This document shows positions 57,060-64,000 of a stretch of 64,000 nt of DNA, in pieces; position 1 is the stretch's first letter, and each line of letters begins with the position of its first letter. Below the pieces are notes generated by a model. The model was given only the letters and a program-made list of their open reading frames with translations, did not search any database and was not told the DNA's origin. Origin of the DNA: Bacteroidales bacterium. GTDB lineage: Bacteria; Bacteroidota; Bacteroidia; Bacteroidales; UBA932. The translations under genes and the position numbers were made by a program. The stretch is taken from the NCBI GenBank assembly GCA_017519185.1, contig JAFWSX010000013.1, positions 24,884 through 88,883 on the forward strand, read 5' to 3'.

Positions 57060-60026
57060 ATGAGAAAAATCGTATCTATCTTGTTCTGCCTGTTATGCTG
57101 CATCGCGACGGCATATGCTCAGTTGTATTATACTCCCGGCAGTGATCCGATCAGAAGATGGAGGAGTCTGCTCACAGAACATTATGAGATTATCTATCCC
57201 GAAGGAATAGATTCCCTGGCAAGAGTTTACGCGGCCAATATGGAGGCCGTCAGAAATGACGCCATCGTCCTTCCCCAGAAAGTAAGTCCGGCGCGCACTT
57301 CAGTTATACTGCATCCCTACACCTTGTCCGGTGACGATGAGAAGCGCAGCAACACTCCGCTCAGGCTTGACGTCTATACCGGCCCCGAGATGTATGACTA
57401 TATGTCAGAGCCTTGGGAATACACCACTGCAATAGCAAAAAGCCGCCAGCTGGGGCAGGAATATCTGCTTGACAGAGGATTCTTCAATGTCCTTTCATAT
57501 GTTCTGGGCGACAATATGCGCCTTCTGGGCGACAATGTATTCTTCAACGGATTCTACAGGCTGGGCGATGAGAAGGTGGCAGTTACTGACCTGTCCCACG
57601 CCGGTGTCGGCAGAGATGCAGATTACCTCAAGGTATACCGTACATCCTTCATAGAAAATGACCTTCGCAATTATGACAGGTGGAAACTCGGATCATATGA
57701 ATATATAACACCCGGCAAGGATGCATTCGGGTATATCCTCGAGTCTAATTACCGGTTTCAGCACGATGACTATCCTTTTGGCCGCGAGTGGGCGGACATA
57801 GTGGTAGCCCATCCGGTAACTGCATTGCTCAAGGGCAGAAGGGCAGATGCTGTCGGTACGTTTATGGCACCTCAGTTCAATGAGGCCAGGGATTCCCTTG
57901 CTGCACTTTTCCAAAGAGATTACAATTCCCGCCGGCCGTTCACTCCGTCCACTTCAGTATGGCCGGCCCGCAATTACACCGAATATGTGTATTTTGTGTA
58001 TATGGAGTCCCAGGATGCCATATATGCCATCAAGGAAAGCCTCCAGGAAGCGCCTCAGCTTGTAAAAATCGACCTGAGTGCAGGTACCGAAAAGTTCCTG
58101 ATGTTTTTCAATCCGAACACATCTTGCATCACGGAATGTAACGGCATCCTCTATTGGAGCGAAACCGTTCACAAAGGGCCGTGGGAACTTTTGGACTATT
58201 CAGAAATATTTTCCTACAATACTGCAAACGGTGCTGTGAAGCGGCTTACAAGGAACACCCGGTATTTCCATCCCGTACCGAACGAGAGCGGCACGGTGCT
58301 GGCAGTCAGCGAAAACACTCCGGAAGGTGATTCATACCTTACAATATTGTCTCCGTCCGGCAACAAGGAGATGAGCATAAGGGCCCCGCAAAACGGCTCG
58401 ATCAAGGAGATGGTCTGGCTGGGCGATGTCCTGTACTGCCTTATAGTTACCAAAGACGGTGTTGGCGTCTATTCGATGAGTGATGACGGATGGAACATAA
58501 GTATCGCCCCTCAGTGGCAGAACATCAGTGACTTTTCGATATACGACATGAATGTCGATGGGCGGCAGACAAAAGTCATTACGTTCGTAAGCGATGTGGA
58601 CGGTGTGTCGAACGTATATGCCTACAATCCTGCGACAGGCAGCGTACATCAGCTTGTAAATTCTCCTTACGGAGCAGCTGAGGCGCAGCCCTACAAGGAC
58701 GGAGGCCTCATATACTGCCAGTATGGCCCCACCGGCTATTCCATTGTCAGGACTTCTGCCGATTATCTGGAGATGAAGAAGGTGGATATGTCTTCTCCTT
58801 ACAAGTTTCCCCTGGCAGAAAAAGGTTCCGAGCTGGCATCCAATGCCTATCCCAAGCCCAGTGAAGACTACATAGCAGAATTTATGGACGAAGGGAGGTA
58901 TCCTTCCAAGCGCTATTTCAAGCCTGCCAATTGGTTCAATGTCCACAGCTGGCTTCCTCTGTATGTCAATATCGGGAATGGAAAGAGCAGGATGGCCAGC
59001 ATCGCATCTTTGGGCGCGATGGTAATGTCGCAGAACAAGCTGGGGACGGTTTCAGCTATGCTCGGCTATTCATACGGCCGCAGCCAGTACTCTAACGTGA
59101 GACGGCACGGATTTCACTCAAGTCTGACCTTCAATGGCACGATTCCCAGGATAGAGCTGAAAGCAGAGTTCAATACGGAAGAGAAGATGAGCTTCGCCCG
59201 CTATATGGACGAATTCGGGCAGCCGGCGCACGCATATCTGATGGCCGATGACGGCCTGCCGTACTATGACGTATCTGTCCGCCTGTATCAGCCTTTGACA
59301 TACAGCGCCCTCGGATTCAACGCTTCCCTACTACCCTCGCTGAGCTATCATCACAACAACATCAGGGCGATAGATTACATCAACAAAGTGGGCTGTACAC
59401 ATTCTGATTATATCGAAGCAGGAATCAGCGGCTCGGTGGAGACTGAACCTGCCCACGCGGCCATTTATCCTCGCTGGGGTCTTGGCTTTTCTATGGACCG
59501 CATCTCTCCTGCATTTCTTGGAGAGGCTTCCAGATGGTTCACTTCCCAGCTGAAGACGGAAGTGTCTGCATATCTGCCCGGCATATGGACAACGCACGGA
59601 GTGAGCGCTTCGATGGCATTTGTACGCCAGAACTGGAAAAACGGGGATGCTGTGTTCCCGATCACCAGCCTCATCGATCTTCCGAGAGGATATCTGATAA
59701 AGGACCTGGCGCAGTTCAACAGCAGGAAATACCTGAAACTGGCTGTGGACTATGCCGCTCCGATAAATCTTAGTGATACCAGCCTCGGAGGTGTGATGTA
59801 CCTGCGGAGGCTTCAGCTCATCCCGTTTGCTGATTATGCCGTCAGCAGCCAGCACGACGGCGGCAGGATACATTATTACAGCTTCGGTACGGACCTGCTG
59901 CTGGATTTCAATGTAGCAAGGTTCAAGGCGGACCTGTCGGCGGGAGTACGAGGCGCACTGAACAATGGCGACGCCTATATGGGGCAGAACGCCACTGTCC
60001 AGTTCCTTTTCAAGCTTGGCCTGTAA
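57060..60026 (+). CDS. Large outer-membrane protein: beta-propeller plus C-terminal barrel
   Basis: A 988-residue exported protein (signal peptide ending ATAYAQ) without a recognised family name. An N-terminal region (HYEIIYPEGIDSLARVY, about 38-260) resembles degenerate peptidase-MA-like domains; no HExxH motif is seen, so it is probably inactive. TolB-like propeller blades follow (about 330-640) and the last 300 residues alternate as in a beta-barrel, ending in VQFLFKLGL with a terminal aromatic pattern. The ATG at 57060 was chosen; a longer frame would start inside the tRNA. It ends directly against the pfkA stop. Confidence 0.75.
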   Translation: MRKIVSILFCLLCCIATAYAQLYYTPGSDPIRRWRSLLTEHYEIIYPEGIDSLARVYAANMEAVRNDAIVLPQKVSPARTSVILHPYTLSGDDEKRSNTPLRLDVYTGPEMYDYMSEPWEYTTAIAKSRQLGQEYLLDRGFFNVLSYVLGDNMRLLGDNVFFNGFYRLGDEKVAVTDLSHAGVGRDADYLKVYRTSFIENDLRNYDRWKLGSYEYITPGKDAFGYILESNYRFQHDDYPFGREWADIVVAHPVTALLKGRRADAVGTFMAPQFNEARDSLAALFQRDYNSRRPFTPSTSVWPARNYTEYVYFVYMESQDAIYAIKESLQEAPQLVKIDLSAGTEKFLMFFNPNTSCITECNGILYWSETVHKGPWELLDYSEIFSYNTANGAVKRLTRNTRYFHPVPNESGTVLAVSENTPEGDSYLTILSPSGNKEMSIRAPQNGSIKEMVWLGDVLYCLIVTKDGVGVYSMSDDGWNISIAPQWQNISDFSIYDMNVDGRQTKVITFVSDVDGVSNVYAYNPATGSVHQLVNSPYGAAEAQPYKDGGLIYCQYGPTGYSIVRTSADYLEMKKVDMSSPYKFPLAEKGSELASNAYPKPSEDYIAEFMDEGRYPSKRYFKPANWFNVHSWLPLYVNIGNGKSRMASIASLGAMVMSQNKLGTVSAMLGYSYGRSQYSNVRRHGFHSSLTFNGTIPRIELKAEFNTEEKMSFARYMDEFGQPAHAYLMADDGLPYYDVSVRLYQPLTYSALGFNASLLPSLSYHHNNIRAIDYINKVGCTHSDYIEAGISGSVETEPAHAAIYPRWGLGFSMDRISPAFLGEASRWFTSQLKTEVSAYLPGIWTTHGVSASMAFVRQNWKNGDAVFPITSLIDLPRGYLIKDLAQFNSRKYLKLAVDYAAPINLSDTSLGGVMYLRRLQLIPFADYAVSSQHDGGRIHYYSFGTDLLLDFNVARFKADLSAGVRGALNNGDAYMGQNATVQFLFKLGL

Positions 60027-61007
60027 TCAGACGCTGAGGATCTTGGTAATCTCGTAGAGGTTGCGGTTGATCTGGTTGTGACGGCTGCAGGCCTCTTCGA
60101 AAGGTGTGTAGGTCACTTCTCCCTTATGGATGCCCACCATAACCCCCTTGCGGTTGTCAAGAAGGGCTCCAACGGCTTCATAACCGAGAGTGCTGGCAAG
60201 CACACGGTCGCTGCAGGTAGGGCTGCCGCCGCGCTGTATGTGGCCGAGAGTTGTGACGCGGGTGCTGTATTCAGGGATGCGCTCCTTCACCTTAGCAGCC
60301 ACTTCTTCGGCACTTCCCATCTTGCCGCCTTCGGAAACGATGATGATGCCTGAGGTCTTGTTCTTGCGTCGTTCGATGACAAGATAGTTGCAGAGGCTTT
60401 CGATGTCAGTCATAATCTCCGGAACGAGCGTCACCTCGGCTCCGGTTGCAATACCGGTGTTGAGACCGATGAAGCCAGCATCGCGGCCCATGACTTCCAC
60501 GAAGAACACCAGGTTGTGGCTCTGCGCGGTGTCGCGGATCTTGTCGATGGCATCCATCGCCGTATTGATGGCTGTGTCGAAGCCGATGGTATAGTCAGTA
60601 CCGTATATGTCATTGTCGATTGTGGCAGGTATACCTACTATAGGTATGTCGAAATCCCCTCCGAGAGCCATCGCTCCTCTGAACGAGCCATCGCCTCCGA
60701 TAACCACCAGACCGTCGATTCCAGCTTCGACAAGGTTGTCGTACGCAATCTGCCTTGCTTCCTTCTCTTTAAACTCAGGGCAGCGTGAAGTCTGGAGGAT
60801 GGTGCCTCCACGGTTGATGATCTTAGAGACGGACTGAGACTGCATAGGGATAAATTTCTTTTTGAGGATGCCTTTGTAACCCTCCATAATCCCCACAACA
60901 TCAATCTTATAGAAAATGGCCGTACGGACTACGGCTCTGATTGCAGCATTCATTCCCGGAGAATCTCCGCCCGACGTAAGCACTCCGATTTTCTCTATTT
61001 CATGCAT
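60027..61007 (-). CDS. pfkA: ATP-dependent 6-phosphofructokinase
   Basis: PfkA, 326 residues, phosphorylates fructose-6-P in glycolysis. Blocks are LTSGGDSPGMNAAIRA, the ATP-site GGDGSFRGA with Gly after GGD (the ATP-type, not the PPi-type Asp), and the catalytic GIPATIDND with the base Asp, followed by GRDAGFIGL and GGSPTCSDR. A near-consensus TATCTTTA on the minus strand (61033-61040) is the probable promoter. Tail to tail with the outer-membrane protein gene, no gap. Confidence 0.97.
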   Translation of the reverse strand: MHEIEKIGVLTSGGDSPGMNAAIRAVVRTAIFYKIDVVGIMEGYKGILKKKFIPMQSQSVSKIINRGGTILQTSRCPEFKEKEARQIAYDNLVEAGIDGLVVIGGDGSFRGAMALGGDFDIPIVGIPATIDNDIYGTDYTIGFDTAINTAMDAIDKIRDTAQSHNLVFFVEVMGRDAGFIGLNTGIATGAEVTLVPEIMTDIESLCNYLVIERRKNKTSGIIIVSEGGKMGSAEEVAAKVKERIPEYSTRVTTLGHIQRGGSPTCSDRVLASTLGYEAVGALLDNRKGVMVGIHKGEVTYTPFEEACSRHNQINRNLYEITKILSV

Positions 61008-61080
61008 ATATTTTGATGTTAATTTTCGTCAGTAAAGATAGTGATTTTAAATTGTTTTTTATTATTAAATAAATTTTTCA

Positions 61081-61088
61081 TACCTTTG
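61081..61088 (+). promoter_or_regulatory. -7 box of the OmpA-like gene
   Basis: TACCTTTG in a very AT-rich region, about 50 bp before the ATG at 61138. Confidence 0.55.
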
Positions 61089-61137
61089 AATGTTACTATA
61101 CACCGACCGACAATTGTTATAATCAAATATTTACTCT

Positions 61138-62532
61138 ATGAAAACTTTGTTCAAAGGATTTCTTATCGCTTCGCTGATGTTTATCGGCGTGGCTGCCAAC
61201 GCTCAGACTAAGATTTACAGCAACGTTGGTACAATCGATGTTACAAAAGCCGAATATAACGGCGACCAGGTAGATCTTGCCTATACCGTTACCATCGATC
61301 CCGAGGTGCAGAACATCATCGGACTCAAAGGCAAGAAAGGCATTGTTATAACCGCCGCCCTGACTGAAGGTGATTACAAACAGGTAATTGAGTGCCTCGT
61401 CATCAGCCCTGCCAAAGGCAACGCCCGTTCAGCTTGGCTGGAAGGCAAATGCGAAGATGTTACCAACAACGTCCGCTATTTCAATGCAAATGCCACTGAA
61501 CCCCTCGTAATCAAATCTAACTACACTCTGAAGGCTAAAGACTGGACTTCTCCCAAGACTGCCCTGACTGTTACCACTCAGGAATACAAGAAGGAAGAGT
61601 GCCTTGTCCGCCTCAATCAGAAGAACGTGGCCAAACTCAAAGCTACCGACCTTACTCCTGCATGGGCTAACCTCGCAGCTAACGGCGGCGAGCCCGAGAA
61701 ACACCTCCAGACCAAACTTTACTATCCTGTAAACGTTACCAACGAGGTTGACGATTATCTCGAGAACGCACAGACCCTGTCACTTCTCAGAACCCTCGAT
61801 TCACCGAACTTCGATGTTACCGGCATCAAGATCAACGGTTGGGCATCTCCTGAGGCTACCGTAGCTTACAACCAGAAACTTTCTGAGAAACGTGCCGCTA
61901 CAATGAAGGATATCATTTCTTCAAGGTACAGCTTCCCTGAGGATGTTTATACTGTAAGCGGCAACGGTGAGTACTGGGATCTCGTTGAGGCTTATGTTGC
62001 TGCAAGTGATGATCCTGCTCTGAAGAAATGGGCCGAGAGGAAGTTCTCTAACCTTGATGCAAGAGAAGCTGCCCTGAAGCAGACAGGTGCTTACAAGGAT
62101 ATCTTCAACACCGTATATCCTCGTTCACGTTTCGCTGACTGCGATGTAACTTACAAGCTCGTCAACTTCGACGCCGCTGCAGTCCGCTCAATCTACAACA
62201 CTTATCCTGAGCAGCTCAGCGAGGCTGAGTTCGAGGCTCTTGCAACTCTCAACGACAACGTTGACAAGGCTGTTGTAGAAAAAGGTCTTTCATTCTATCC
62301 GGAGAGCCAGGCTCTTAACAACCTCGCAGCCAAGGCTGCCTGCGCTGAGGGCAACTATCGTCAGGCTATCAACTACCTCCAGAAAGCTGGCAACAGCAGG
62401 GAAGTCTTCAACAACATGGGTGTTTGCTACATGCTCCTTGGCGACAAGGCATCTGCTACTCAGTCATTCCAGAGGGCTTTCGGTCTTCCTGAGGCTACCA
62501 AGAACCTCAACGAGATCAAGAAGATGGACTAA
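61138..62532 (+). CDS. Exported OmpA-like/TPR protein
   Basis: A 464-residue exported protein (signal peptide ending AANAQ). A beta-sandwich N-terminal part (about 25-190) is followed by an OmpA-like segment (about 225-270, INGWASPEATVAYNQKLSEKRA) with the Asn/Arg pattern of peptidoglycan binding, and TPR-type helices at the C-terminus (about 375-455, YRQAINYLQKAG...NNMGVCYMLLGDKASA). The order resembles DUF3868-containing fimbria-associated proteins, but that match is tentative. The codon usage suggests high expression. A terminator follows. Confidence 0.75.
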   Translation: MKTLFKGFLIASLMFIGVAANAQTKIYSNVGTIDVTKAEYNGDQVDLAYTVTIDPEVQNIIGLKGKKGIVITAALTEGDYKQVIECLVISPAKGNARSAWLEGKCEDVTNNVRYFNANATEPLVIKSNYTLKAKDWTSPKTALTVTTQEYKKEECLVRLNQKNVAKLKATDLTPAWANLAANGGEPEKHLQTKLYYPVNVTNEVDDYLENAQTLSLLRTLDSPNFDVTGIKINGWASPEATVAYNQKLSEKRAATMKDIISSRYSFPEDVYTVSGNGEYWDLVEAYVAASDDPALKKWAERKFSNLDAREAALKQTGAYKDIFNTVYPRSRFADCDVTYKLVNFDAAAVRSIYNTYPEQLSEAEFEALATLNDNVDKAVVEKGLSFYPESQALNNLAAKAACAEGNYRQAINYLQKAGNSREVFNNMGVCYMLLGDKASATQSFQRAFGLPEATKNLNEIKKMD

Positions 62533-62554
62533 TTGATAATACACATATTATATA

Positions 62555-62590
62555 AAAGGTGACTGGCCTTCGTGCCAGTCACTTTTTTTA
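62555..62590 (+). terminator. Terminator before tRNA-Leu
   Basis: Stem GTGACTGGC / GCCAGTCAC with a CTTCGT loop, followed by seven T (62555-62590). Confidence 0.88.
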
Positions 62591-62591
62591 T

Positions 62592-62599
62592 TACCTTTG
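62592..62599 (+). promoter_or_regulatory. -7 box of the tRNA-Leu gene
   Basis: TACCTTTG ends 10 bp before the first base of the tRNA; the -33 region lies inside the preceding terminator. Confidence 0.6.
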
Positions 62600-62666
62600 T
62601 CACACTTACGCCTTGGTGGTGGAATGGTAGACACGAGGGACTTAGGCTGGTTCTTTGAAATAATTA

Positions 62667-62698
62667 TTTGTAAGACATGATGGTTGATCTTAACTTTG
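62667..62698 (+). promoter_or_regulatory. Internal promoter of the intron-encoded endonuclease
   Basis: TTTG (62667-62670), a 20-bp spacer and TAACTTTG (62691-62698), full Bacteroidetes consensus inside the intron. The ATG at 62704 follows by five bases, predicting a leaderless mRNA. Confidence 0.65.
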
Positions 62699-62703
62699 CG
62701 TGT

Positions 62704-63324
62704 ATGAGCAAAGCTAAATATTCAATTGAAGATGTCAAGCAGGCTGTTTCTGACAGCAAGTCTGTAGCGGGTGTCTTGAGGCAATTAGGGCTTAGGCCCA
62801 TTGGTGGGAACTATAGAACCATAAATAGGATAATAGCGGAAACCCAAATCGATACTTCTCATTTTACTGGGCAGGGATGGAATGTCGGATTGGCCTTTAA
62901 GCCGAACAAGGGCATCTCAGATGAAGACATATATGTAAAAGAGTCATCATATAAATGCTCTTGGCGGTTGCGCGAGCATTATAAGAAAACTACAGGCATC
63001 GCTCATTGCGAAAAATGTGGTTTGGATAGTTGGCAAGCTCACCCTATTCCGCTTGAGATTCATCATATCAATGGTAATAATACGGACAACAGATTGGAGA
63101 ATCTTCAACTGCTATGCCCGAACTGCCACGCTCTTACAAAGAATTATCGAGGAAGAGCCAAATTGAGTGCTCTGTCCGAAAGGAGAGATGTAGAATGTCG
63201 TAAATTCAAGGAAGCCTTAACGGGTAATGCCGATGGTAATCTTGAGCCAAGCCTTTTCAAAGAGGAAGGTGCAGAGACTAGACACGACACACCTAAAGAC
63301 GATCGGTCCATGGTGAAGGAATAG
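62704..63324 (+). CDS. Intron-encoded HNH endonuclease
   Basis: A 206-residue HNH protein. The N-terminal DNA-binding helix region (about 5-58, SVAGVLRQLGLRPIGGNY, IDTSHFTGQGWN) is the one found in many free-standing phage and bacterial HNH enzymes. The HNH domain (about 85-155) has a zinc ribbon, CEKCG and CPNCH, and the IHHINGNNTDNRLENL core with the general-base His. The last 50 residues are encoded by the ribozyme core, and the stop TAG at 63322-63324 is part of P7. The ATG at 62704 was preferred to the one at 62677 because of the promoter box between them. A homing role is inferred. Confidence 0.88.
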   Translation: MSKAKYSIEDVKQAVSDSKSVAGVLRQLGLRPIGGNYRTINRIIAETQIDTSHFTGQGWNVGLAFKPNKGISDEDIYVKESSYKCSWRLREHYKKTTGIAHCEKCGLDSWQAHPIPLEIHHINGNNTDNRLENLQLLCPNCHALTKNYRGRAKLSALSERRDVECRKFKEALTGNADGNLEPSLFKEEGAETRHDTPKDDRSMVKE

Positions 63325-63368
63325 TCCGGACCACAAACAGAGATGGTGGCGAAAGCCATAGTGGCAAG

Positions 63369-63419
63369 AAAATCCCTTGGGCAGTAATGTCCGTGCGGGT
63401 TCGAGTCCCGCCCGGGGCA
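63369..63419 (+). other. Probable integration (att) site in the tRNA-Leu 3' end
   Basis: The tRNA 3' end with its T arm (GCGGGTTCGAGTCCCGC) directly precedes a tyrosine-recombinase gene reading away from it, the usual layout of an element integrated into a tRNA gene. The second repeat would be right of the window, so this is unproven. Confidence 0.5.
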
Positions 63420-63463
63420 CGAAGGAATGTTTTTGAAGTTTTTCAAGCATTTCTTGCAAACGG

Positions 63464-63507
63464 AAAAGTCTAACAATTAGCGAGTTGCTGTTGTTAGACT
63501 TTTTTTA
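63464..63507 (+). terminator. Terminator after tRNA-Leu
   Basis: Stem AAAAGTCTAACAA (63464-63476) / TTGTTAGACTTTT (63491-63503), ending in a T run to 63507. Confidence 0.85.
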
Positions 63508-63537
63508 ATGTTGCTTGGTATTTCGGAAAATAGCTTG

Positions 63538-63567
63538 TATTTTTGTCTTGTAAATAGTTTTTACAAG
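63538..63567 (+). promoter_or_regulatory. Promoter and inverted-repeat operator of the integrase gene
   Basis: TATTTTTG (63538-63545) is followed at once by a perfect 8-bp inverted repeat CTTGTAAA (63547-63554) / TTTACAAG (63560-63567) with a 5-bp spacer, ending 2 bp before the ATG. The repeat covers the expected start site, as a repressor operator would, or forms an mRNA hairpin. Confidence 0.5.
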
Positions 63568-63569
63568 CT

Positions 63570-64000
63570 ATGGCTGTAACGTTCTATCTTTTCACGAGGC
63601 CGGACAAGAAAGGCGACCACCCGATTTACACATCCATCTACCTCAATGGGTGCAGGTTCTGTTCCAGTATAGGGTACAGCATCAGCCCCAATAAATGGGA
63701 TGACGAGAAAATGAAGGTGAAACACGGTGCAAGCAATGCCAGGAAGGTTCCGTTCAATACCATCAACTCCAGGATATCGGCAATCTCTTCCAAGTTCGAC
63801 ACCCTTGAGGCCAACAATGCGAAGCTGACCAAGGAACAGATCAAGAAGCAGCTTGCAGAAGTAATAGGAAGGCAAGTTAAGGGAGAAGAGACGGAGGAAA
63901 GCGGCTCGGTCGGCTTCTTCAAGCACTTTGACGAGTTCATTCTCGATGGGAAAATAAACCACAAATGGGCTTTGAATACCGTCAAGAAATGGGGAACGCT
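63570..64000 (+). CDS. Tyrosine recombinase/integrase (5' part, cut by window)
   Basis: The first 143 residues of a Bacteroidetes-type phage integrase: an arm-binding domain (about 1-100, MAVTFYLFTRPDKKGDHPIY, IGYSISPNKWD, INSRISAISSKFDTLEA) and the beginning of the SAM-like core-binding domain (GFFKHFDEFILDGKINHKWALNTVKKW). The catalytic R-H-R-Y domain lies beyond position 64000. It begins 150 bp after the tRNA-Leu 3' end and reads away from it, marking the left end of an integrative element. Confidence 0.88.
   Translation, partial: MAVTFYLFTRPDKKGDHPIYTSIYLNGCRFCSSIGYSISPNKWDDEKMKVKHGASNARKVPFNTINSRISAISSKFDTLEANNAKLTKEQIKKQLAEVIGRQVKGEETEESGSVGFFKHFDEFILDGKINHKWALNTVKKWGT

What the first reader, a model, noticed from the sequence alone, without database searches (positions are those of the whole stretch)
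62610..63419. Group I intron with HNH endonuclease in the anticodon of tRNA-Leu(UAA) of a Bacteroidales
Both tRNA halves are present and join to a perfect Leu(UAA) tRNA only if 62644-63368 is removed. The insertion after U34 is the same as in the cyanobacterial/plastid trnL-UAA intron, and the Q (AATCTTGAGCCAAGCC) and R (GTGCAGAGACTAGAC) elements closely resemble that intron as I recall it. Classic bacterial tRNA introns are in cyanobacteria (Leu) and proteobacteria (Arg, Ile); I know of no well-described Bacteroidales case with its own endonuclease.
Basis: partly seen in the sequence, partly recalled or inferred. Interest (0 to 1): 0.93.

Follow-up and report, generated by a model that had tools for sequence, protein, structure and literature searches.

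The report
Mobile ribozyme intron splitting Bacteroidales tRNA-Leu
In a Bacteroidales bacterium related to rumen and gut species, the only gene found for one leucine tRNA is split by a catalytic-RNA (group I) intron that carries a gene for a predicted DNA-cutting enzyme; the intron is predicted to splice itself out and likely spreads by copying itself into unsplit copies of that gene, and relatives of it sit in the same tRNA gene of many related bacteria and of predicted phages.

Summary
Confirmed. Exons 62610-62643 and 63369-63419 join to tRNA-Leu(UAA). The 725-nt insert is a group I intron (Rfam RF00028, 50.3 bits) between U34 and A35. None of the 37 other tRNAs found in the genome is Leu(UAA). 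The intron is not a lone curiosity: it sits at this site in 76 further Bacteroidota contigs, and its core matches in 71 of 398 genomes of the window's family. Of 77 introns, 19 have an HNH ORF starting in the P1 loop, 14 an enlarged loop without a full ORF (several with HNH remnants) and 44 neither. Five congeners carry the uninterrupted gene at the same locus. The bacterial HNH genes form one clade under purifying selection. Mobility is well supported; splicing and homing are untested. The coding start is better placed at 62704, behind a Bacteroidota-type promoter motif. The new part: the reading frame runs on through the ribozyme core and stops inside P7. In bacteria that tail is probably passive (the frame is as open in ORF-less introns). 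In five viral contigs with this tRNA-Leu(UAA) intron the frame continues into a selected zinc-ribbon/HTH-like domain coded in the P8 loop, so there the core is predicted to be both ribozyme and protein linker.

The parts
62610..62643 (+). 5' exon of tRNA-Leu(UAA), ends with U34
   Evidence: ARAGORN tRNA-Leu(taa) on joined exons
62644..63368 (+). group I intron, 725 nt, last base G
   Evidence: RF00028 50.3 bits; R1 194 bits at 63163-63327 (the window is one of R1's 36 training sequences); uninterrupted gene at the same locus in congeners
63369..63419 (+). 3' exon of tRNA-Leu(UAA), starts with A35
   Evidence: ARAGORN on joined exons
62667..62698 (+). promoter-like TTTG (62667-62670), 20 nt, TAACTTTG (62691-62698), in the P1 loop
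   Evidence: consensus TTTG / TAnnTTTG from a passage of PMC7366714; function inferred
62704..63324 (+). HNH endonuclease ORF, 206 aa from the likely start, stop TAG 63322-63324 inside P7; an earlier in-frame ATG lies at 62677
   Evidence: AlphaFold: residues 1-151 largely folded, 152-206 pLDDT under 50
63007..63132 (+). HNH domain (residues 102-143, Pfam HNH; HNH_3 at 114-137)
63163..63327 (+). P1 3' strand and ribozyme core P2 to P7 (model R1); 63163-63321 is also in the open frame
63570..63998 (+). start of an integrase-like gene (Arm-DNA-bind_5) of an element apparently integrated at the tRNA 3' end; cut by the contig end; not part of the intron

Best explanation
This is a group I intron of the bacterial tRNA-intron kind that interrupts the only tRNA-Leu(UAA) gene found in this genome, between U34 and A35; it is predicted to splice itself out to restore the tRNA, while the predicted HNH endonuclease encoded from its P1 loop likely cuts intron-less copies of the same gene so that repair would copy the intron in (homing). 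Shown from sequence: the split gene and the lack of another copy in the assembly, the covarying core, the empty site at the same locus in congeners, patchy occupancy, selection on the HNH gene, and HNH remnants in sister introns. Inferred: self-splicing, cleavage and homing, and that the HNH mRNA starts at a promoter inside the P1 loop, which would give a transcript without the 5' splice site that can be translated across the core without competing with tRNA splicing. The intron then likely follows the known cycle of invasion, endonuclease decay and loss. Phages with the same intron in their own tRNA-Leu(UAA) genes are plausible vehicles (inferred).
For: tRNA and intron. No second copy. Family: R1 matches 71 of 398 genomes, in 4 of 25 genera; an intact-site pattern matches 259 of the same 398; compared by eye, 4 of the 71 match both, one of these (G709) by a Leu(CAA)-type sequence. 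Same genus (26 genomes with own): 5 with Rfam matches, 9 with an intact site, none with both. Uninterrupted Leu(UAA) behind the same two neighbour genes in G001, G002, G004, G013 and G022. Core covariation. HNH: 19 bacterial proteins one clade, SH-aLRT 100; dN/dS 0.18 for the window against G008 and 0.07-0.15 in the 4 of 171 pairs among the 19 with dS<1. Of 77 introns 19 have the ORF, 14 an enlarged P1 loop, 44 neither; ORF-or-remnant versus none needs at least 23 changes on the core tree. Own versus G008: equal length, 31 of 725 differ, while 200-nt bins of the two genes just upstream (60000-62599) are 75-89% alike. Promoter-like motif in 14 of 20 introns over 700 nt, 0.43 expected from shuffles.
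Against: No RNA or biochemical data. Rfam score barely above cut-off. In the order-wide even sample only 2 of 393 genomes match, one of them in another tRNA. Three of 71 matching genomes (G698, G761, G780) also show an intact Leu(UAA) pattern; in MAGs this may be contamination or strain mixing. Of the 71, G009, G636 and G761 are 40-nt partial matches, and the host tRNA was not checked in each genome. In 11-12 of 26 congeners neither state was found (many are incomplete). Core-tree branches are weak (59 of 99 inner branches open), so the 23 changes are soft. The promoter motif is absent in 6 of 20 (in its strict form in 13 of 20), and related sequences make the shuffle contrast look stronger than it is.
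Confidence: 0.86

Rival explanations
1. The intron is a vertically inherited, immobile self-splicing element like the plastid tRNA-Leu intron, and the HNH gene is a passenger; patchiness is loss only.
For: Core sequences are strongly conserved (83% mean column identity) and 44 of 77 introns have neither ORF nor enlarged loop. Own and G008 share locus and intron.
Against: Occupied and empty genomes are mixed within genera and at one locus; HNH genes are under purifying selection; tree rows of L112 and L150 (ORF) and L127 (none) have identical cores.
Confidence: 0.08
2. The split gene is decaying and the cell lives without a working tRNA-Leu(UAA), the insert being a dead element.
For: UUA is rare: 36 of 1609 Leu codons in window ORFs of 250 aa or more, overlapping ORFs not removed. 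No expression data.
Against: Exons match the uninterrupted genes of G001, G002 and G004 except one acceptor-stem base (84 of the 85 bases printed); the core covaries; 67 of the 71 genomes with a core match show no match to the intact-site pattern.
Confidence: 0.03
3. The HNH protein acts mainly as a splicing helper (maturase) or cuts another site, and does not drive homing of this intron.
For: The HNH family is widespread in phages (232 of 50,697 records matched, intron context not checked for most). I did not search Bacteroidota genomes for this HNH outside introns.
Against: ORF-less introns with identical or near-identical cores argue against a needed maturase; empty sites exist at the same locus.
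Confidence: 0.06

Closest known systems
[quoted passage not shown]
   Same: Same tRNA; described as inserted in the UAA anticodon (PMC5733544, passage); small tRNA-type core.
   Different: Host phylum; HNH gene in the P1 loop. That the cyanobacterial Leu introns lack ORFs is recalled, and none was aligned here. [quoted passage not shown]
Synechocystis tRNA-fMet intron with I-Ssp6803I
   Same: Bacterial tRNA intron with an endonuclease ORF inserted in P1 that overlaps core sequence (61 nt, P1/P2; table in PMC3073962; enzyme name recalled).
   Different: Other tRNA; PD-(D/E)XK, not HNH; here the overlap is 162 nt, P1 to P7 (63163-63324).
'Core creep' endonuclease ORFs (PMC3073962, 2011)
   Same: ORF extends from a loop into core helices and stops there.
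   Different: Largest overlap in the Table 1 shown is 81 nt. In five viral contigs here the frame leaves the core again and codes a second, selected domain in L8.
phrog_10822 HNH endonucleases of phages
   Same: Window protein matches residues 2-172; the L188 protein matches 2-277, C-terminal domain included.
   Different: The bacterial intron version lacks the C-terminal zinc-ribbon/HTH-like part.

Membership tests
Group I intron (Rfam RF00028) | Score above gathering threshold with P3-P8 fold | tested here: met
   50.3 vs 50 bits; P2, P3, P5, P6 and P8 covary, P4 and P7 pair but never vary, in 36 sequences
Group I intron (Rfam RF00028) | U at the 5' exon end, G at the intron end | tested here: met
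   U at 62643, G at 63368
Group I intron (Rfam RF00028) | Self-splicing with guanosine | not testable with these tools
   needs RNA work
tRNA-Leu(UAA) intron of the cyanobacterial/plastid type (IC3) | Insertion in the UAA anticodon of tRNA-Leu | tested here: met
   between U34 and A35; anticodon placement from PMC5733544, exact 34/35 recalled, PMC4033280 words it differently
tRNA-Leu(UAA) intron of the cyanobacterial/plastid type (IC3) | Common descent with the cyanobacterial Leu introns | not tested
The 77 Bacteroidota and 6 viral Leu introns separate from 20 of 21 hand-picked other tRNA introns, SH-aLRT 83
tRNA-Leu(UAA) intron of the cyanobacterial/plastid type (IC3) | IC3 peripheral elements and tertiary contacts | not tested
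   GAAA loops in L2 and L9 are seen in the sequence; their meaning for IC3 is recalled
Mobile (homing) group I intron | Intact endonuclease ORF under selection | tested here: met
   Pfam HNH; dN/dS 0.18, 0.07-0.15 in four other pairs
Mobile (homing) group I intron | Empty allele of the same site in close relatives | tested here: met
   G001, G002, G004, G013, G022 at the same locus
Mobile (homing) group I intron | Cleavage of the empty site and intron transfer | not testable with these tools
   needs protein and a cross
'Core creep' ORF | Coding frame overlaps core helices | tested here: met
   stop TAG at 63322-63324 in P7
'Core creep' ORF | Core-coded residues matter as protein | tested here: inconclusive
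   bacteria: frame open to L6 in 44 of 44 ORF-less introns too, so no sign; viral contigs: the L8 domain beyond the core is selected, which would need reading through it

The most novel reading that the evidence does not exclude
A homing endonuclease whose gene is threaded through a working ribozyme: nuclease domain in the P1 loop, DNA-binding domain in the P8 loop, and the catalytic RNA core between them translated as the flexible protein linker, with expression from an internal promoter so that mRNA and tRNA precursor do not compete. Phages keep the full version and bacteria a shortened one, and the intron moves between phage and host tRNA-Leu(UAA) genes.
Probability: 0.5. Interest if true: 0.88.

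Novelty: new variant of a known kind. Interest (0 to 1): 0.74.

Why it matters
A 2014 review lists bacterial tRNA group I introns in cyanobacteria and alpha- and beta-proteobacteria (PMC4033280, passage), and another says phage group I introns were all in protein genes (PMC3984707, passage). Here a tRNA intron with an endonuclease is common in one Bacteroidales family and occurs in the tRNA-Leu genes of viral contigs, with ORFs from intact to remnant. That gives a natural series for testing how endonucleases invade introns and creep into ribozyme cores. [quoted passage not shown]

Tried and rejected
Rejected: that the bacterial core-coded tail is conserved as protein. The frame is open to L6 in 44 of 44 ORF-less introns and stops at the P7 TAG in 19 of 44, against 19 of 19 and 7 of 19 with ORF. 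Rejected: the integrase element as carrier of the intron; its apparent attachment core is the tRNA 3' end, downstream of the intron. Rejected: start codon 62677. ARAGORN with introns called the window gene tRNA-Ser(aga) with a shifted intron; joined exons and empty sites settle it. Corrected while checking: I had taken L243 and L248 for P1-loop ORFs; their HNH ORF ends directly at the P7 5' strand, so it lies in another loop, probably P6.

Led nowhere: PDB sequence search with A2 (best E 0.12); Foldseek on the L188 model, nothing at E<=0.001, best weak hits HNH nucleases. crAss-like phage cr111_1 has an HNH next to a tRNA-Leu but R1 found no intron there. PHROGs on 10 neighbouring viral ORFs named few functions. 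Papers: listings; passages of PMC3984707, PMC7886860, PMC3073962, PMC7366714, PMC12386605, PMC5733544, PMC8450103, PMC4033280; no paper read whole.

My exon pattern fixed GGGACTT and AAAATCCC, so equal splice sites are by construction and other stems would be missed. 'Remnant' means a P1 loop over 24 nt without full ORF. In the HNH tree 28 rows were labelled free-standing; at least L265, L243 and L248 of them are intron-borne, which does not touch the bacterial clade. L251 dropped out of the core tree because my pattern missed it; L276 was left out of the viral count because its 5' exon was not found. L188 joined exons were not recognised by ARAGORN, though the stems pair by eye.

Full report
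WHAT IS THERE. Window 62610-62643 and 63369-63419 join to a tRNA that ARAGORN reads as Leu (taa). The 725 nt between them, 62644-63368, match Rfam Intron_gpI at 50.3 bits against a gathering score of 50. The 5' exon ends in U34 and the intron in G, as a group I intron should. G000 (2.2 Mb, 37 contigs, completeness 100) has 37 other tRNA matches; the Leu ones are UAG, CAA, CAG and GAG, and the joined gene finds no intact copy. UUA is rare but used: 36 of 1609 Leu codons in window ORFs of at least 250 aa. In standard decoding only a UAA anticodon reads UUA (established knowledge), so splicing is inferred to be needed. The window is Bacteroidales by kinship: the same-genus contig G006:C34 has the length and match place of JAFXNQ010000052.1, titled Bacteroidales bacterium, sheep reticulum.

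THE RIBOZYME. From these 76 complete tRNA-Leu(UAA) introns were cut out with a pattern that fixes the exon ends; all 76 are Bacteroidota, 64 labelled Bacteroidales, many titled as rumen, omasum, reticulum or horse-faeces MAGs. On 36 cores, with P7 written as a pseudoknot, 98.6% of cells pair, 13 pairs and 108 cells show double changes, against shuffled means of 93.4%, 8.3 and 31.4; sliding the partners drops pairing to 34-43%. P2, P3, P5, P6 and P8 covary; P4 and P7 never vary, so they say nothing either way. L2 and L9 of the window are GAAA loops, which I recall as usual in tRNA introns.

OCCUPANCY. With model R1, 71 of 398 genomes of the window's family match, in 4 of 25 genera; three of these are 40-nt partial matches, and the host tRNA was not checked in each. 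A pattern for the uninterrupted gene matches 259 of the same 398. Compared by eye, 4 of the 71 match both; one (G709) is a Leu(CAA)-type sequence, leaving G698, G761 and G780. In an even sample of the order only 2 of 393 match, the window's genome and an intron in another tRNA. Within the genus 5 of 26 genomes are occupied by Rfam score (a sixth, G009, has a 40-nt partial match) and 9 have the intact site. I fetched all 9 loci: ARAGORN reads Leu (taa) in each (G012 is cut by a contig end), and in G001, G002, G004, G013 and G022 it lies behind the same two genes as in the window; for the other four these neighbours were not in the stretch. The G001, G002 and G004 genes equal the window's joined exons except for one acceptor-stem base, over the 84 of 85 bases printed. 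This is an empty-site comparison at one locus. G008 is occupied there by a 725-nt intron with 31 differences, 1 of them in the last 206 nt, while 200-nt bins of the two genes just upstream are 75-89% alike, and the next gene 57-75%.

THE ENDONUCLEASE. Of 77 introns, 19 carry a full ORF starting in the P1 loop, 14 an enlarged P1 loop without full ORF (several with recognisable HNH remnants) and 44 neither. ORF-or-remnant versus none needs at least 23 changes on the core tree, and tree rows of ORF-less L127 and of L112 and L150 are identical. Most inner branches are weak, so this is indicative. The 19 bacterial HNH proteins form one clade, SH-aLRT 100, against viral relatives, which suggests one acquisition followed by repeated loss or exchange. 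dN/dS is 0.18 for the window against G008 (17 synonymous and 13 nonsynonymous differences over 153 codons); of 171 pairs among the 19 only 4 have dS below 1, with 0.07-0.15. The HHxNG and NCH motifs and four cysteines (zinc binding inferred) are invariant in 19 aligned sequences, 14 bacterial and 5 viral. Homologues start at the position of window ATG 62704. Of 20 introns over 700 nt, 14 have TTG-N18-22-TAnnTTT[GAC] in the first 110 nt (0.43 expected) and 7 the strict form (0.045 expected); the published Bacteroides form is TTTG and TAnnTTTG (PMC7366714, passage). The window has TTTG-N20-TAACTTTG, five bases before ATG 62704. I infer a separate HNH transcript that lacks the 5' splice site.

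THE FRAME THROUGH THE CORE. The window ORF runs on through the core and stops at the TAG of the P7 3' strand, 63322-63324. Against a protein reading: the same frame is open to L6 in 44 of 44 ORF-less introns and stops at that TAG in 19 of 44, versus 19 of 19 and 7 of 19 with ORF. In bacteria the tail is best read as a by-product of RNA conservation; AlphaFold gives residues 152-206 pLDDT under 50. Viral contigs differ. Three scans gave IMG/VR contigs whose tRNA-Leu(UAA) holds the intron. In L188, L246, L254, L257 and L195/L258 the ORF continues from the core into a stretch coded in L8 that resembles a zinc ribbon and an HTH (Pfam hits all below cut-off) and ends at the same TAG. ARAGORN reads the joined exons as Leu (taa) in L246, L254, L257 and L258, not in L188. 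In the two close pairs (L188/L246, L254/L257) dN/dS is 0.21 and 0.12 for the HNH part and 0.10 and 0.34 for the L8 part; core dS is 0.13 and 0.17 against 0.32-1.10 in the other parts. That is protein selection on both sides of the core and suppressed synonymous change within it. Core dN/dS itself is 0.92 and 0.12, and in three distant pairs the L8 ratio is 0.33-0.75. The L188 model is confident for most of residues 1-149 (not 57-67) and for 206-287, with the core-coded 150-205 below 50, as a linker would be; pTM is 0.35, so domain placement is unknown. phrog_10822 covers both ends of this protein. Other states exist: L265 keeps the HNH ORF in the P1 loop, ending at the core edge; L259 (Leu taa) stops inside the core; in L243, from a 595-kb record named uncultured phage, and L248 the HNH ORF ends directly at the P7 5' strand, so it sits in another loop, probably P6. 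So endonucleases of this family have entered this kind of intron in more than one way, and viral intron HNHs fall in more than one place of the HNH tree. The direction of change is not established, and hosts of the viral contigs were not determined.

KNOWN OR NEW. Seen as passages: tRNA group I introns listed for cyanobacteria and alpha- and beta-proteobacteria (PMC4033280); tRNAscan-SE not designed to detect them (PMC8450103); phage introns all in protein genes as of 2014 (PMC3984707); core overlap up to 81 nt tabulated (PMC3073962). Searches for Bacteroidetes or Bacteroidales tRNA introns showed no report in their listings, in a library without most subscription papers. I file it as a group I tRNA-Leu(UAA) intron in a new variant: new phylum, P1-loop HNH, viral sharing, core-crossing frame. 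Descent from the cyanobacterial Leu intron was not tested.

SURROUNDINGS. An integrase-like gene begins at 63570, and the contig ends at the window end. On contig C30 a copy of the tRNA 3' end followed by a terminator-like hairpin looks like the other attachment site, and congeners show that native end. So an element has apparently integrated into the same tRNA gene from its 3' side.

Noticed in passing
window 63402-63998 and L041 / G000:C30:11897-11920: An element with an Arm-DNA-bind_5 integrase apparently uses the 3' end of the same tRNA-Leu(UAA); the displaced native 3' end with a terminator-like hairpin lies on contig C30. The swap changes one acceptor-stem base from A to G.
   Followed up: partly
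L199 (G370:C127): A more distant genome of the order has an R1 match (97.9 bits) in what ARAGORN calls a tRNA-Ile with a 212-nt intron: possibly a second kind of tRNA intron in the order.
   Followed up: no
L243, L248: Viral tRNA-Leu(UAA) introns with the HNH ORF directly before the P7 5' strand, probably in P6 rather than P1: an independent insertion of the same HNH family.
   Followed up: partly
L064, L068, L094, L103, L135, L142, L147: Clostridium/Clostridia contigs carry the core next to a sequence that looks by eye like a tRNA-fMet 5' half.
   Followed up: no
L123: A Woesearchaeota contig matches the core pattern in a tRNA-like context: an archaeal tRNA group I intron candidate.
   Followed up: no
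L113; L102, L109, L130: Aeromonas veronii and other gammaproteobacterial tRNA introns with the same core motif; host tRNAs not assigned.
   Followed up: no
L182, L185, L251, L291: Viral contigs with group I introns in other tRNA-like genes (ARAGORN: Asn, Met, Asn, Pyl-like); assignments uncertain.
   Followed up: partly
L188:106-167; L195:7994-8245; L259:2089-2461: A twister-P1-like match and an RNase P class A-like match (both below cut-off) and a tmRNA (above cut-off) in viral contigs.
   Followed up: no
G680:C60:8208-8303, G710:C33: Extra weak R1 matches in genomes that also hold a strong one, perhaps further introns or remnants.
   Followed up: no
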